DNA of 64,000 nucleotides from contig NC_011696.1 of the NCBI RefSeq assembly GCF_000150955.2, positions 62,001 through 126,000 of the forward strand, read 5' to 3'. Below the pieces are notes generated by a model. That model saw nothing but the letters and a program-made list of their open reading frames with translations, was not told the DNA's origin and searched no databases. This DNA is from Phaeodactylum tricornutum CCAP 1055/1. Its lineage: Eukaryota > Bacillariophyta > Bacillariophyceae > Surirellales > Neidiaceae. A program made the position numbers and the translations under genes. Within the stretch, counting starts at the first letter, position 1. Every line of letters starts with the position of its first letter. This document shows positions 55,242-63,980 of this stretch, piece by piece.

Positions 55242-58200
55242 TTAGATCCCAAGACCGTCAGATACAACCAGTTTAACAATAAGCTGCATTTCCTTTGTAG
55301 CTGCAACGTCAAAGCTTGGGTCGGCAGCTTTCTTTTCGAGGAGCTCGTCGACTTTTAAGCGCAGGCCGCCTACCAACGAGCCAATTCGAGCATTTGCCGA
55401 CAGCTTGGCCCAGCCATCCACCACAATCACTCCTTTGGAAGCTTGCACGTCGAGTTTGCCTCCAAAGAGCAACAAAGCGTACGCGCTGCATTCGGTGACG
55501 TCTCTCAGAAACGCTTTCGAGGTCCGTACCAAAGAAAAGTAGACAAGCCAAGGACAACCATACGAACAAGTTGCAAAGCTAGACGAGGATGGATGCATAA
55601 AGACACGTTCTTCTTTTCCGTTCCATGAGTTTCCGTTGGATTTTGCGGAAGCGTCGACAGAAGTTCGGACATAGAATTTCAGCTCTTTCGCTTGGCCATC
55701 TTTCTCCCTCGCGCCTTCGGCAGTCTCGTGATAGACAGTAGCGGGTCGTACCACCTTCACGAGTTGAGCTGGTGACATGGCAGCAACTGCGCACGTACGA
55801 ATGATCCGCCATGAGTGTCCGTTTCGGTCGGAGTCAACAGAAGAAATATACCCAATCGAAGCCAGTGCTGTATCAAGCTGACGGAATAGCTGCAACATAT
55901 CGCGCATACCAGGAATACTAAGACCAAGGGAATCACAGAAACGTTTCCGAGAACCACCCCCCGAGTCAAGATTTTTCCATTTCAAAAAGACGCTTGCAAG
56001 AAGTGCATGATCACTGTTGCCAACAATTGTAAACAGATTTCTTCGCCCTTCTAAAATTTGATGGTTCTTCATTTCCTCGATCCCTGCTCGCTCGTCAATT
56101 TTGTCTTTCCCTCTTTTGCGAGAAACATCGATTTTGAGAAAGGGGCTTCTACCAACGCTCATTGCAGCTGCCATAGCTAGGGCTGCTTCTCTGCAACCTA
56201 AGATTGATCCTAAAATCAAAACTGTTTTAAAAAGGGAAACGAGTGAGCACTGGACAAAACCAAACAGACGCAAGTATTGAGTTCGGACATACTTTTTCCA
56301 ACCATTGGAGGAGCGGGTATGCCTGCTAAATGAGTTCCTAGAGGGGTCAATTTGAGATCTTCCCCGGAAGGCGTTGCAATAGCACCTAGCTGACGAAGGC
56401 TATCAATAGCTGCAACAAATGAAACTTTGCTGGGAGGATCAAGAAGACTCTCCATGAATAGTCCTTTTGCACTACTTTCGACGCCAAGAAAAAGCAAAGT
56501 CAGAAGGGTTTGATCCAAGGCGCATCGTTGGATTTCTGGCTCTCCATGATCTCGAAGCCCGTCATATGTTGATCGAGAAATCAACTTGTAACATTTACCC
56601 TCCCGAACGCGCCCTGCTCTTCCTCTCCGTTGCTTAAGACCTGCGAAAGGTAAGAAAGGTGTTGAGATGCGAAAGTACATACAATAGAGGACGTTTTTAT
56701 CATTCACTTACTTGCTTTCGAGCAAAATTGCTCAAGCAAAAGCGGCATACGATTCGCAGCATCGTAAGACGATTGCTTCTCACGAGCACTGTCGATTACA
56801 ATAGTGCAATCGGGAATTGTAATTGAGGTCTCCGCCACGTTAGTCGAAAGAATTACTTTCGTCAGTCCCGTAGCGGCTGGCTTGAACACTAGGTTCTGCT
56901 CCCGGGGCTGCAATCCGCCATGGAGTTGAAGAAGCAGTAAAGGAAACCCATCCGTCCAACGCTTAACCGCCTCCTGTGCTCTGTTAATTTCGGGAGCACC
57001 TGCCAAAAATACGAGAATAGAACCATCGCTACCGGCGCTGCTATTCGCTATAAGATGCTTCACTAGTTGGCCCAACATATCGTAGTCCACCAAGGTTTCG
57101 TCAATTCTTCTCACAAGATCTTCGACTGGAAATCCGTGGCTTGTAAGCTCTTTCGGTGGAAAGTCAACACTTTCCAGGTTGCTTTCTTCCATCGAGGTCT
57201 CGTCTTTATCTATGGAACCTGATGAATCACCATTTCTCTTCTTCTGTTTTCGGGGGATATATCCAGTCATCAGCAATACATCTTCCAACATATAGTCTTT
57301 GACAGGATAGGTGCGTCCTGGAATATGGATACGAGGAGTATTCTCCCCAAAATAGGCTGCAAAACGACCGGCATCCAATGTCGCACTCATGAGAATAACG
57401 CGAATGTTTTTTCGGCTTCCTATACTTTGCTTCAATAGTCCGAGGAGTACATCTGTATCTAAATGGCGCTCGTGAACTTCGTCAACAACAACGTGTGTGA
57501 TACAGTCTAGGGCTCCTTCAGTCTGTAGTTGGCGCAGGAGGACTCCAGTTGTGCAAAACAAAAGCCGGGTACTTTCGCCCATTGCAGAGTCCCCCCGAAC
57601 GACATATCCCACGCTACCAACTCCTGCCTGTTGTTCGCCTCGTTCTTCAGCCACCCTAGTAGCCACACCTGTAGCTGCCAATCTGCGAGGCTGACAAACA
57701 ACGATCTTTGCATCATTTGGAGATTCTTCCAAAATAAATTGAGGTATCTGACTAAAACAATAGAGTCGATCAGAAACAAAGTCAGAACTGATAGCAAATG
57801 AAACTGACACTGGGAAAAAGTTTTTTGGTCGAACTTACGTCGTCTTTCCACATCCTGTATCCCCAGTAACGAGAACGACTCGACCACGCTGGTTCGGACC
57901 GATCACGTGAGAAAGACTTGAATCAAGACAAGTTACGACGACTAACAAATACTGACCTTATCCGCTTCTCTCATAACGCGGAGAAACTCCGTTCGAGCGG
58001 AAGCTGCCGGTAGAGACTTTCGTATCGAATTCAAAGATCTCGGTATGTTTGGGTGTGCCACAGCTGGCCGGGTATCTGTAGGGAGCTTGCTCCAGAAAGG
58101 ACTTCGTTCGCGAGCACGACGGATCACTCGAGACTGGAGCTTGCCCCTTTCCCGACTGGGCTCTAGCGCTCTGTCGTCTAACGAGCGCTTGATTGTACTT

Positions 58201-59948
58201 GTTATTTCACTGTCGATATCGAGCAACGATACCAGCGATTCTGTTTTCAGCCTCTCGACATTCTGCAATAAAGACAACACAAGACCATGGATCTCGAAAA
58301 AGACAGGCTCGCCTGGTTGAAACGAGGAAAGGAACTTGGCAATTTCATAGTGAATGCTTGTACCGACCTGTCCGACAGTCCATTTACCCGAAAGCAATAC
58401 CTTTTCGGGCAGTCTACTAGGGTAAAGACCTTCCTCCACAACAACGCAAAGTGAAAGCCCCCATTCTTTGAGCATCACTGAATTCGAAACAAAGGTGCCT
58501 TCTCTGACAGAGCTGAAATCAGAACCAAAAATTGCCTGCAATGCTTCGACCTCTTCGTGTGTAGATTCTACATTACTGTCTCTTTCGATAAGAGGTGTAT
58601 TCAGCTGATGACACGTAGCACCCACTGCCTCATGGACGATTTCCCATAAGACGTCTTCAGGTTCTCTTGTGCCTCTGGAAGCCATTTTACAGAGCTCGTT
58701 AGCTTCTGGGACTGTCAGACCGTAGTGTGCAGCGACTACAAGAGTTTCTGGAGGACAGCCATCTGTACCCGAAGAGTTGTGCTTAGTCCCGGTTTGTTTT
58801 AAAGAGTCAGGAACAACTACATCGAGAGTACGTCCTCGAGGATCGAAGCCTTCAGGCAGTTGGTCTTCGTTCAAGTGCACCAATAACCACTGAAGACAAG
58901 CTTCGTAGGCCTTTTCCCATTCGTCCTCCGTGAAAGCGGGGTTCTTCCCCACAACTTCGTCGAATGCAGAACGTGATTGACGTTTCGTAAAGCCTTCATG
59001 GCAGAGACGATGTTCCACATATTCCTGAGCGTCATCGTCCACAGCATCTACTGTATTATCTTCTCCATCATCATGCTGCAAGAAGTTCGTGTCGCCACGT
59101 AGCAAGCGTTCGATCTCTTTCCGAATTCTTGCGCCCATAAATACGGGATGATTCTGGTTTGCCATGCGTATATTTTCATGACGTCGAATGCGTGCGTTTC
59201 GCTCGCGGGTCTTCTCCTGTAACATATTCCGACGCTCCGCAGAACTTGCATATGAAGTCCCCCTGATCAGATTGGCTGACGCTTGCGCGCACCCCGGACT
59301 TGGTTGTGTTGAAATGGCGCTAGGTTTAGCAACCCTGGTGAGAGCAGAACCCGAAGTGACGCTCGCCTCATTTGACACGTCTTTACTAGCTGTTTTTAGT
59401 GCGTTGATTGCGTTTAACCAAGTCAACTTGTAGGGATCGGGAAGCTTTCTTTCGTGCGGCAAAGTCGGTGTTAGTTGAAGAAGTGCCAGTAAACAGGCTT
59501 CTTCTTTGGCTTGTTCCTCGTTTACCACCGAGGAAGCGGGTACAAAGAAGAGATCCTTTTGAGTATCTTTTCCGTCTGGAAGTATGACTCTGTACCTAAA
59601 TTTACCTTTCGCTTTGTCAATGTTCTTGTACTTGGGACAAATACGCTTTTGACGCTTGCACACTTCCTCCAATAGTTGGGAAGGAAGGCACTGCCATTGG
59701 GCAACTTGAGTTTTTCCGACATCGGTTGTCCTGGCTTCCTGACTCTTCAAGGCTATCTGTCCAGATGCACCCTTCTGCTTGTGCCCTTTTCCACCCCACG
59801 TCTGGCTCTCGGGATCCCACTTGTGACCCTTGGAGGGTCGGGGAGGTCGATTTCCACAAGTACAAGTAAAAGGATGATCGCAAGTACACTTAGGTGCTGT
59901 CGCCAACGCCGTCTTGACATCGTTTCCCTTCTTATTGGATTTTCCCAT
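55242..59948 (-). CDS. DExH-box RNA helicase, DHX57/DHX29-like, with RWD domain
   Basis: Five exons in order: 59948-57957, 57888-57839 (50 bp), 57751-56712, 56640-56293 and 56221-55242, giving 1469 residues. The joins restore EADKRGRVVLVTGDTGCGKT, then TQIPQFILEE (Walker A), CSKASLKQRRGRAGRVREGK (motif VI) and VGKILILGSILGCREAALAM. The helicase core also has DEVHERHL, LMSATL and TNVAETSITIPDCTIVIDS, followed by HA2/OB-fold parts. The N-terminal 660 residues begin with a Cys cluster (CTCDHPFTCTCGNRPPRPSK). They contain a double-stranded-RNA-binding-like stretch (KYKNIDKAKGKFRYRVILPD), a UBA-like helix set (YGLTVPEANELCKMASRG) and an RWD domain (EEVEALQAIFGSDFSSV). DHX29 aids 43S scanning on structured mRNAs. 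DHX57 has a UBA-RWD-helicase layout much like this. Exon 2 is a 16-codon micro-exon carrying Walker A. Confidence 0.88.
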
Positions 59949-61240: not shown

Positions 61241-63980
61241 TTACGACTCTAGTGCAGGTTCCGCAGGACAGAGACCATATAGAAGCGCATGCAATCGATA
61301 CATCGCTTCATCTTTAACGTAGTGAAATGCCACACTGTGTGCTGCGCAATGGTCCAAACCTTCTTTGATGTTGATGGAGTATTTGGCGTACCAGTCTGTG
61401 CTCTTGTCGGTCGGGAAACGGTAACCGTAGTGGTGACCTGGCATAAACGGCATATATCGCTCCCCACCATTTTCGTCCTTCGTCTCGTATGGGAATATGT
61501 TATAGTGTCTAAACGTCCTCGCCACCATTGTGTCCTCTGAAAAGGTGTGGGCGTGAGAGAAAAGATTGGGAAAGCCGTCGACTACCAACGTTTTGAGCGC
61601 CGCCTTATTCATGGTATAACCGGAACCACCAGAGTTGAAAATGTCGTTCATATCTCCCATGTAAGCGAAGCGTCGACCCAAAAAAAGAGGAACTTGCGTC
61701 GTTTCTGTACCATCGGGTAAGTATATTCCACCATTCGCTGCGGTCTTGATCTCCTCGCTTTCAAGATACAGGCGTAGGTTCTCGACCAAGATATACAGGT
61801 CATCGCCGCCCATATGGAACCAGTCGTACTTTTCGTAGTAATTGTCATAGATGTAGCTTAACATACTCCGTATTTTCTGCCACATATTACTGTAGTCCTC
61901 CGGGCCTTCGTGCGGAATGTCGACAGTATTCAGTGTGGCATCAGTTTTGTTGGATGCAACAATAAAGCCATCACATTTTTGTCTATGAAAAGGATAGAGA
62001 TGAGGACTCAGCAGTTCCATTCAAGCACTTAAATCACATATGATCTTACCCCCACGTCTCGGCAATCCTCTGGATTCGAGGGTGTGCACTCTCGATCGAG
62101 TAAATTCCGCAAAATATTTTGTCACGCTTTTGTAGAGACTTTTCGGCTTCAGCGTGCGCCTTAAAATCGATTTTTACTTTTTCATGCAGCATGCGGTAGT
62201 TGTTGTCTCGTTTGCTACAGGCTCGTGCCAGATCATCTCCCATGAAGTTGATTGCAGGTGGGTTTTTGCGCAAAGCCGTCTCATCGTGTGTATACCCAAA
62301 GTTACCGTCAGTGTCTCGAGCCCCCCTGTGAGGGTCTTCGCGGTGACCGTTTGACATATCCACATATGCAATCTCTACAGGCCTCGCTCGTTGGACGATT
62401 TCAAGGCACTCTTTGCAGAGAGGTTTGGTAGGCTTTTTTTGGTCGTGCCTTTCTGGAATGACAAACTCCTCCTCACTCCCATCCACCTCTTGCCTTTCCT
62501 TGTCATTACGTTCACCATGCAATGGTGTTTTGCCTGGTACAACTGGTGTCTTTTCGTTAGCACGTTCGGCCGTGTTTGCATTACCTTCTACGGCATCAGC
62601 CGACTTCGCGCTTGTTTCGCTATTTGCTGCCATAGGTTTCCCTTTAGGCAGTTCCTCCGATGCTTGTAAGACGTTTCCTAGCTCTGGATTGACGCGGTCG
62701 ATAAACCACTTAAAGTCACGGCATCTGGACGTCATGGCTGTGAATCCTGGTTCTTGCCTCGCAGCGGATTGGAAGGTTTCCCATTCCAGATACGTCATAT
62801 CTGGATTGGCTGTCTTGGTGTAGGCGTTGAAAAACTTTTTTGCAAGCGTTTCGTCCATCCACGCTGCTGCAAAACGAGCCGCCTGTTGAGGAAGCAAGGA
62901 TGCCGCAGGAGGCGACGCGTCTATGCTTGTAACTTTTGCGTCCTCCAGCATGTCGATTCCATCAGCGCACAACCAGAGGTTCATTGCTAGATCCAGATTC
63001 GCAGGCCAGGCTTCTTGAAGCGATTCATCGTGAATTGGTAGGTTCAAATACGTATCGAGTCGCAAAGCAATAGCTGCCCCGTTTAATGCCGGTGTTGGAT
63101 AAGAGTCGCCGTTGTTCTGATTCATGTCTTCCGCACTGGACTCGGAAATGACCGCCGCCAACGTTTCATCAAAAGACGTTCGCTTACCGGGTCCCTCAAG
63201 GTTAAAAGAGACTGCGTTGGCCAACTTCATTGCCACGGTAGAATCTTCCTTACCCAAAAGAGGCGGAGGAACAATGAGAGCTTGTGTGACGGGTAACAAC
63301 CATCGCCGTGATTCCAGCTGAGTACCGCCCTCCATCAACAAGAGCAACAAATCTTCTTGCGGAGATTTTAAGGCCGCTTGTTCGTGCTTCTCGGATAACA
63401 AACGAATAAATTCGACACCATCCGCACGCGACGCCGTTACACCCCTTTGCCTGGCGTTGAAAATAACGTGTACCTTGCGGCCATGCGCTTCCTCTTCCTT
63501 GGGCTGTGTCGCACCGGCATTGTGCAAGTCGGGTGTTTGGCCATGCCAGTGAGGAATAGTGCCACCGTCAATCTTTTGCAAGTCCTGGACCAAGGTCAAG
63601 TCTTCCGCCATGCCGTCGACGACGACGGTTACCACAAAGATACGATCCATGTCTGTTTTGGAAAAGACTGATTCGACGGAAGCGATAAGGTTTTGCCGAT
63701 CGCGACCGACGACAACTACGGCAACGCGAGGGTGCGTAGGGCCGTACCCCATGATATCGACGCGATCCAGAGCGTTGCGAATCTCCATGCGCAAATTATT
63801 CGAAGCAGGCACCGAAGCGTTCCCGGGAATAGATGTTTTTACCCGAGGCGAAGAGGCCGCAAACAAGGCCATAATCATTAATGGCCAAAAACACGCGAAG
63901 GCGAGGAACAGCCGTGCTGTCGTCGAGTCGCCTTGTCGAAGACCATGCTCGCCAGCCTTTCGCTTCGAATTCAAAGACAT
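61241..63980 (-). CDS. Fused glycosyltransferase: degenerate GT27 (pp-GalNAc-T-like) domain plus GT31 (core-1 beta3-Gal-T-like) domain
   Basis: Two exons, 63980-62050 and 61982-61241 (67-bp intron, donor GTAAGA, acceptor TTCATAG), give 890 residues. The N-terminus is type II: RLFLAFACFWPLMIMALFAA near 24-43. Residues about 84-440 align along polypeptide GalNAc-transferases: VAVVVVGRDRQNLIASVESV, VHVIFNARQRGVTASRADGV, TPALNGAAIALRLDTYL, LQEAWPANLDLAMNLWLCAD, AAWMDETLAKKFF and CRDFKWFIDRVNPEL. The metal-binding DxH is EGG (LLLLMEGGTQLESRRW), and the later His is absent. A Lys/Glu linker follows. Residues 622-880 match C1GALT1: HPRIQRIAETWGQKCDGFIV, YYEKYDWFHMGGDDLYILVE, NLRLYLES, FNSGGSGYTMNKAALKTLVV, AFHYVKDEAMYRL. 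DDD is GDD, keeping two acids. Probable Golgi enzyme adding beta3-hexose to a protein glycan. Confidence 0.85.

What the first reader, a model, noticed from the sequence alone, without database searches (positions are those of the whole stretch)
61241..63980. One polypeptide joins a metal-dead GalNAc-transferase-like domain to a core-1-galactosyltransferase-like domain
Mucin-type O-glycan initiation (GT27) and first extension (GT31 C1GalT) are normally separate proteins. Here both folds follow one TM anchor. The GT27-like half (62661-63728) keeps the fold marks, including the AxWMDE and FKWFI.RV.PEL blocks, but has EGG for DxH, lacks the WGGE acid and lacks the later His. The GT31 half (61260-62117) keeps its main motifs. 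This suggests the first domain became an acceptor-binding module (as a lectin or pseudoenzyme) guiding the second. I know of no described enzyme of this design.
Basis: partly seen in the sequence, partly recalled or inferred. Interest (0 to 1): 0.78.

Follow-up and report, generated by a model that had tools for sequence, protein, structure and literature searches.

The report
Dead GalNAc-transferase domain fused to galactosyltransferase
In a diatom genome, one gene joins a sugar-transferase domain that seems to have lost its catalytic parts to a second, apparently working one; animal enzymes also lean on dead relatives, but this pairing was not found described, and its function is untested.

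Summary
The fusion is real in the sequence. A minus-strand gene (63980-61241, 890 aa; genome recalled from contig sizes as Phaeodactylum tricornutum) has one hydrophobic anchor, a GT27-like domain (~84-440), a linker and a C1GalT-like GT31 domain. One 657-codon frame runs from the anchor into the GT31 domain; a 67-bp intron lies inside that domain. The GT27 assignment is secure for residues 267-434 (E 6e-5; 0 of 2000 shuffles) but not for the first half, so 'EGG for DxH' rests on position. The later metal His, the WGGE acid, W331, three peptide contacts and most of the flexible loop are lost. The GT31 half matches Drosophila C1GalT1 (E 2e-29) and keeps the catalytic base, C-terminal His and several acceptor residues; its DxD reads GDD, as in 8 of 9 paralogues compared. 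A GalNAc-T1 search of the genome found only this gene. Two other C1GalT genes carry a dead GT31-like domain in front. Other diatoms could not be searched and both structure predictions failed. New variant of a known kind.

The parts
61241..63980 (-). whole gene, ATG to stop, 890 aa (900 aa if an in-frame ATG outside the window is used)
63855..63911 (-). single strong hydrophobic segment (residues 24-42), predicted type II signal anchor
   Evidence: hydropathy scan, best 19-residue mean 2.3
62661..63731 (-). GT27-like pseudo-GalNAc-transferase domain (residues 84-440)
   Evidence: only residues 267-434 are statistically secure
63324..63332 (-). EGG (217-219), where DxH is expected; by position only
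63000..63002 (-). A327 in place of the WGGE glutamate (T2 E334)
62925..62927 (-). S352 in place of the metal-ligand His (T2 H359)
62967..62969 (-). Cys338, at T2 C345
62721..62723 (-). Cys420, at T2 C423; with Cys338 the only Cys in residues 70-445
62850..62861 (-). WMDE block (374-377)
62418..62660 (-). charged low-complexity linker (441-521), where GalNAc-Ts have a short linker and a ricin-type lectin domain
   Evidence: sequence; passages of the T. gondii GalNAc-T paper
62136..62417 (-). LCxEC module and stem (522-615), shared with four chromosome-25 paralogues
62050..62135 (-). start of the GT31/C1GalT domain, exon 1 part (616-643 and two bases of codon 644)
61983..62049 (-). 67-bp GT-AG intron, phase 2
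61241..61982 (-). GT31/C1GalT domain, exon 2 part
   Evidence: E 1.9e-29 to Drosophila C1GalT1
61799..61807 (-). G703-D704-D705, aligned to Drosophila D181-D182-D183 (DxD)
61532..61537 (-). E793-D794, xED motif with the catalytic base (Drosophila D255)
61391..61393 (-). W841, aligned to acceptor-contact W300
61322..61324 (-). H864, aligned to the metal-ligand C-His H324

Best explanation
A type II secretory-pathway glycosyltransferase with one working domain and one dead one. The C-terminal C1GalT-type GT31 domain is the catalytic part: by homology it transfers a sugar, probably galactose from UDP-Gal, in beta-1,3 linkage to a GalNAc-like acceptor, with D794 as base and D705 and H864 holding the metal. 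The N-terminal domain descends from a polypeptide GalNAc-transferase but has lost most of its metal, donor and peptide sites. It now serves mainly as a built-in structural partner that helps the catalytic domain fold, pair or stay in place, doing in cis what the dead relatives COSMC and CHPF do in trans. Shown: architecture, homology (first half of the GT27-like domain excepted) and residue losses. Inferred: catalysis, sugar, acceptor, and the scaffold role.
For: Single ORF through both domains. GT27 homology of 267-434 with W331, E334, H359, F280, W282, F361 and most of the flexible loop gone, while the WMDE block and the two Cys stay. C1GalT1 homology with E-D base, C-His, W300, Y304 and S220 equivalents kept. 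Two other C1GalT genes of the genome carry a dead GT31-like domain in front, so dead-domain-plus-C1GalT exists with two different kinds of dead domain. Precedents: COSMC lacks DxD and is a chaperone (passages of PMC9065035; of PMC7185993); CHPF/CHPF2 do not transfer sugar but are required for complexes with CHSY1/3 (passages of PMC12748766).
Against: No direct evidence for a scaffold role; it is by analogy. Loss at functional sites (1 of 10 invariant positions kept) is not significantly heavier than elsewhere (22 of 58; Fisher p 0.15). The catalytic domain lacks the first DxD Asp, acceptor contacts R152, Y213 and Y218 are changed, and 2 of 6 Drosophila Cys are kept, so its activity is not certain. 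Eight of the other ten C1GalT genes show no such partner, judged by their ORFs and by the dead-domain search, so it is not generally needed. The fold of the first domain could not be modelled.
Confidence: 0.42

Rival explanations
1. Acceptor-guiding module: the dead GT27 domain still binds the acceptor protein or a glycan and presents it to the C1GalT domain.
For: The GT27 fold holds mucin-like peptides, and some GalNAc-Ts use a second domain for guidance (passages). Among the ten C1GalT domains compared (the window's and nine paralogues) the window's alone keeps Drosophila Y304 and Y325 and scores best against Drosophila C1GalT1, a C21 copy close behind.
Against: Peptide contacts F280, W282, F361 and most of the flexible loop are gone; no other GT27-like sequence was found in the genome to make Tn; sister genes use a GT31-type dead domain in the same place.
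Confidence: 0.25
2. Relic: an ancestral bifunctional enzyme (GalNAc initiation plus Gal extension) lost initiation; the N-terminal domain is now little more than a stem.
For: The two domains correspond to consecutive steps of one pathway; the only GT27-like sequence found in the genome is this one.
Against: A 357-residue frame without stops and retained marks and Cys pair suggest a constrained fold. The GT31 half groups with four unfused paralogues (local support 0.933), so the fusion may be young and never bifunctional.
Confidence: 0.2
3. The N-terminal domain is an active, metal-independent transferase with remodelled chemistry.
For: Some GT-A families lost DxD and work without metal (GT14, prokaryotic GT6; passage of PMC7185993).
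Against: W331, E334 and H359 equivalents are all lost, and nothing seen replaces them.
Confidence: 0.05
4. Gene-model artefact: two adjacent genes read as one.
For: No transcript data were available; the linker is long and of low complexity.
Against: Exon 1 has no stop between the domains and already encodes the first part of the GT31 domain.
Confidence: 0.05

Closest known systems
Polypeptide GalNAc-transferases (GT27)
   Same: type II anchor; second half of the catalytic domain including the WMDE and C-x-x-F-x-W blocks and two Cys
   Different: DxH not found in place, C-His, WGGE acid, W331 and peptide contacts lost; no ricin-type lectin domain detected after it; a C1GalT domain stands there instead
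C1GalT1 / T-synthase (GT31)
   Same: whole exon-2 domain, catalytic base, C-His, W300, Y304, S220
   Different: GDD for DDD; R152, Y213, Y218 changed; 2 of 6 Cys of the aligned region kept; fused to another GT domain
COSMC (C1GALT1C1)
   Same: a dead GT serving, here only proposed to serve, a C1GalT
   Different: COSMC is itself GT31 and a separate protein; here the dead domain is GT27-like and fused
Chondroitin synthases and CHPF (GT31 + GT7)
   Same: two GT-A domains on one type II polypeptide, some copies dead
   Different: GT31 is N-terminal there and its partner is GT7; they share a middle domain, which was not looked for here beyond Pfam
Tandem GT31(dead)-GT31 proteins of the same genome (C25:456k, C19:113k)
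   Same: dead GT-A domain in front of a C1GalT domain
   Different: the dead domain is GT31-type, not GT27-type

Membership tests
GT27 polypeptide GalNAc-transferase | sequence homology to the catalytic domain | tested here: met
   second half only, E 6e-5, 0 of 2000 shuffles; first half not secured
GT27 polypeptide GalNAc-transferase | DxH metal motif at its place | tested here: inconclusive
   EGG by position; that region is not statistically aligned; the one DxH string in the domain, DLH 151-153, lies upstream of the expected place
GT27 polypeptide GalNAc-transferase | C-terminal metal His (T2 H359) and WGGE acid (E334) | tested here: not met
   Ser and Ala
GT27 polypeptide GalNAc-transferase | ricin-type lectin domain after the catalytic domain | tested here: not met
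   no Pfam family in exon 1 up to E 10, and this gene is not among the 12 ricin-lectin places of the genome search
GT27 polypeptide GalNAc-transferase | GalNAc transfer to Ser/Thr | not testable with these tools
   needs an assay
GT31 C1GalT | sequence homology over the catalytic domain | tested here: met
   E 1.9e-29
GT31 C1GalT | DxD metal motif | tested here: not met
   first Asp is Gly, third kept; G-D-D in the window gene and 8 of 9 paralogues compared, V-E-D in one
GT31 C1GalT | xED catalytic base and C-His | tested here: met
   kept in 10 of 10 domains compared, the window's included
GT31 C1GalT | GalNAc-contacting residues S220, Y218, D255, W300, Y304 | tested here: inconclusive
   4 of 5 kept, Y218 is Phe
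GT31 C1GalT | Cys of the three conserved disulfides | tested here: not met
   2 of the 6 Drosophila Cys in the aligned region are Cys here (read); that these six are the disulfide Cys is inferred from the legend
GT31 C1GalT | core 1 synthesis | not testable with these tools
   needs an assay
chondroitin synthase (GT31-GT7) | N-terminal GT31 and C-terminal GT7 | tested here: not met
   order GT27-like then GT31

The most novel reading that the evidence does not exclude
The gene descends from a single polypeptide that both started mucin-type O-glycans and added the first galactose; this diatom lost the first activity and turned that domain into an internal partner of the second, while other diatoms may still carry an intact DxH version.
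Probability: 0.15. Interest if true: 0.8.

Novelty: new variant of a known kind. Interest (0 to 1): 0.5.

Why it matters
Dead glycosyltransferases that support live ones are known as separate proteins (COSMC, CHPF). Here a dead domain of a different family is built into a C1GalT-type enzyme, and the same genome holds two more C1GalT genes with another kind of dead domain in front. That makes the partner hypothesis testable by cutting one protein in two. It also bears on whether diatoms make mucin-type O-glycans: the genome shows eleven C1GalT-like genes but no canonical GalNAc-transferase in the search done. Pfam and NCBIfam gave no match above cut-off for either half, so automatic annotation may well miss it.

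Tried and rejected
Structure: AlphaFold2 from the single sequence gave mean pLDDT 39.3 for the N-terminal domain and 31.3 for exon 2 alone. Both are too poor for a fold search, so none was run; the fold claims rest on sequence.

Relatives elsewhere: N-terminal domain in viral contigs, GTDB genomes and phages, none; profile of three GalNAc-Ts in viral contigs and GTDB, none confirmed; C-terminal domain in viral contigs, none. These scans start from short peptide patterns, so distant relatives can be missed. The collections hold prokaryotes, viruses and plasmids and the only eukaryote genome at hand was the window's own, so conservation of the fusion in other diatoms is untested.

A canonical GT27 elsewhere in the genome: the GalNAc-T1 catalytic domain matched only this gene, E 0.0034. 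PF02709 (Glyco_transf_7C) gave one place, in another protein on C9. PF00535 (Glycos_transf_2) gave 11 places, none on C28; they were not examined one by one. Ricin-type lectin domains gave 12 places, none on C28.

hhalign on the first half against three GalNAc-Ts gave score 15.7, inside the shuffle range (largest of 200: 22.8). Composition of the halves (GC3 0.55, 0.47, 0.55) told nothing about origin. A weak Pfam hit of exon 2 to a BPTI-like family (16.2 bits, cut-off 27) was rejected as chance.

My notebook says 11 other C1GalT genes; the right count is 10 others (12 rows minus the window gene and one row that is the dead domain of C25:456k).

Full report
What is there. The gene lies on the minus strand, 63980 to 61241. 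Exon 1 runs to 62050, a 67-bp GT-AG intron follows (62049-61983), and exon 2 ends at the stop at 61241, giving 890 residues. An in-frame ATG ten codons upstream lies outside the window. The open frame that holds exon 1 covers 657 codons in the genome and has no stop between the two domains. In the junction stretch tested, eleven GT-AG pairs keep the frame open; only the 67-bp one restores ETWGQKCDGF, a block that paralogues read without an intron as TWG or TWA, one residue, then KCDGF or GCDGF. The genome (27.45 Mb, 88 contigs; window contig 387,582 bases) matches Phaeodactylum tricornutum by size, from memory; the taxonomy tool only gave that species' lineage.

The first domain. Neither Pfam nor NCBIfam recognises exon 1. 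Against solved structures, residues 267-433 match GalNAc-transferases with E 1.4e-4; 15 of 18 rows up to E 10 are of that family, counting 8uhv, which is labelled only 'Glycosyl transferase' and taken from recall as Toxoplasma GalNAc-T3. The domain alone gives 6e-5 and 16 of 19 rows. A model of four GalNAc-Ts scores residues 263-447 at 32.7 bits; the best of 2000 shuffles reached 8.5 (1138 of them scored at all). hhalign gave score 60.1 against 26.3 for the best of 200 shuffles. The first half is not secured: 100 of 2000 shuffles reach the score of block 81-140 and 5 of 2000 that of block 167-245, and hhalign on the first half stays inside the shuffle range, although the string KVHVIFNARQRGVTASR resembles the GalNAc-T block KVRVLRNDRREGLMRSR. 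Conversely, the mouse GalNAc-T1 domain (row 1xhb) searched against the whole genome finds only this gene, E 0.0034.

What the first domain has lost. GalNAc-T2 holds its manganese with D224, H226 and H359 and recognises peptides with F280, W282 and F361; the flexible loop is 362-373 and W331 moves with it (passages of PMC4432651). Aligned here, H359 is Ser, E334 is Ala, W331 is Ala, F280 is Ala, W282 is Ile, F361 is a gap, and the loop is shortened. EGG at 217-219 takes the place of DxH by position only. Of 68 positions of the second half invariant in the four GalNAc-Ts, 23 are kept: 1 of 10 at functional sites and 22 of 58 elsewhere, a difference that is not significant (Fisher p 0.15). The only two Cys of residues 70-445 fall on T2 C345 and C423; that these form a disulfide in T2 is recalled.

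The second domain. Exon 2 matches Drosophila C1GalT1 with E 1.9e-29. In that enzyme D181 and D183 are the DxD motif, D255 the base, H324 the C-His, and S220, Y218, D255, W300 and Y304 contact the acceptor (passages of PMC9065035). Here D183, E254-D255, H324, Y325, S220, W300 and Y304 are kept; D181 is Gly, Y218 is Phe, Y213 is Met and R152 is Tyr, and 2 of 6 Cys of the aligned region are kept. In the ten domains compared (the window's and nine of ten paralogues; one copy on C21 was left out of this call) G-D-D is found in nine and V-E-D in one; the base and C-His are kept in all ten; Y304 and Y325 only in the window's. By BLAST score it is the closest of the ten to Drosophila C1GalT1 (117 bits, 31.7%), with a C21 copy close behind (110 bits, 35%). 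GDD may still bind metal, since GnT-I is recalled to use mainly the last Asp of its EDD; this is not tested, and in chondroitin synthase both outer Asp of DxD are reported to hold the metal (passage), which speaks against it.

Relatives in the genome. The GT31 search gave 12 rows: the window gene, ten other genes, and one dead domain. No paralogue of the first domain was found; the other six matches of exon 1 begin at residue 519 or later. In a FastTree of the eleven domains with the Drosophila one, the window's groups with four C25 genes (local support 0.933), which share the LCxEC module but whose ORFs have no room for a GT27-like part. So the GT27-like domain was probably added in front of a C25-type gene. 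Two other genes, at C25:456k and C19:113k, carry a GT31-like domain in front of the C1GalT domain; the C25 one matches the C19 one (E 5.7e-7) and the window's C1GalT domain (E 7e-7), and both lack the DxD first Asp, the E-D base and the C-His in the alignment. Thus three of eleven C1GalT-like genes have a dead GT-A domain in front, of two kinds.

How it most likely works. I think the C-terminal domain is the enzyme and the N-terminal one a structural partner in cis. Precedents are COSMC, a chaperone of C1GalT1 without DxD (passages), and CHPF/CHPF2, which do not transfer sugar but are needed for the chondroitin polymerase (passages of PMC12748766). The acceptor-binding idea is weaker because the GT27 peptide contacts and most of the loop are gone, because no other GT27-like sequence was found to make the Tn acceptor, and because sister genes use another kind of dead domain in the same place. 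It is not excluded. All functional steps are inferred.

Novelty. Paper searches for C1GalT with diatoms (2 papers), P. tricornutum with GT31 or O-glycosylation (20 of 73 listed), GalNAc-transferase with diatoms, GT27 with diatoms (20 of 106 listed), GT pseudoenzyme fusions (15 of 18 listed), the enzyme's full name with Phaeodactylum, COSMC-type fusions and mucin-type glycans in P. tricornutum (10 of 1,085 listed) showed no title or abstract opening that describes this fusion. I read passages only, of PMC7773692, PMC12748766, PMC11074326, PMC7064563, PMC9065035, PMC7185993, PMC3797821, PMC4432651 and PMC6994419. The library lacks most subscription papers. I rate it a new variant of a known kind.

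Limits. Both structure predictions failed; no other eukaryote could be searched; no transcript data were at hand. The fusion could be confined to one species.

Noticed in passing
L032:2089-4365 (C25:456k) and L034:1641-3905 (C19:113k): Two tandem proteins with a dead GT31-like domain in front of a C1GalT-like domain; no Pfam match up to E 1.
   Followed up: partly
L031:1265-2764: A C1GalT-like paralogue with HGVED where the others have xGDD, possibly inactive.
   Followed up: no
L035:1869-8434: Three similar C1GalT-like copies in tandem on C21, two of them with a short repeated NES(A/P)VIV stretch before the domain.
   Followed up: no
G000:C16:721700-725695 and C23:499570-503691: Two very long open frames (2109 and 2867 codons), each with at least three ricin-type lectin domains.
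   Followed up: no
window 57942-59948, minus strand: Neighbouring ORF with weak matches to RWD and DHX29 domains, below the curated cut-offs; an ORF that looks helicase-like by eye follows at 56704-57810.
   Followed up: no
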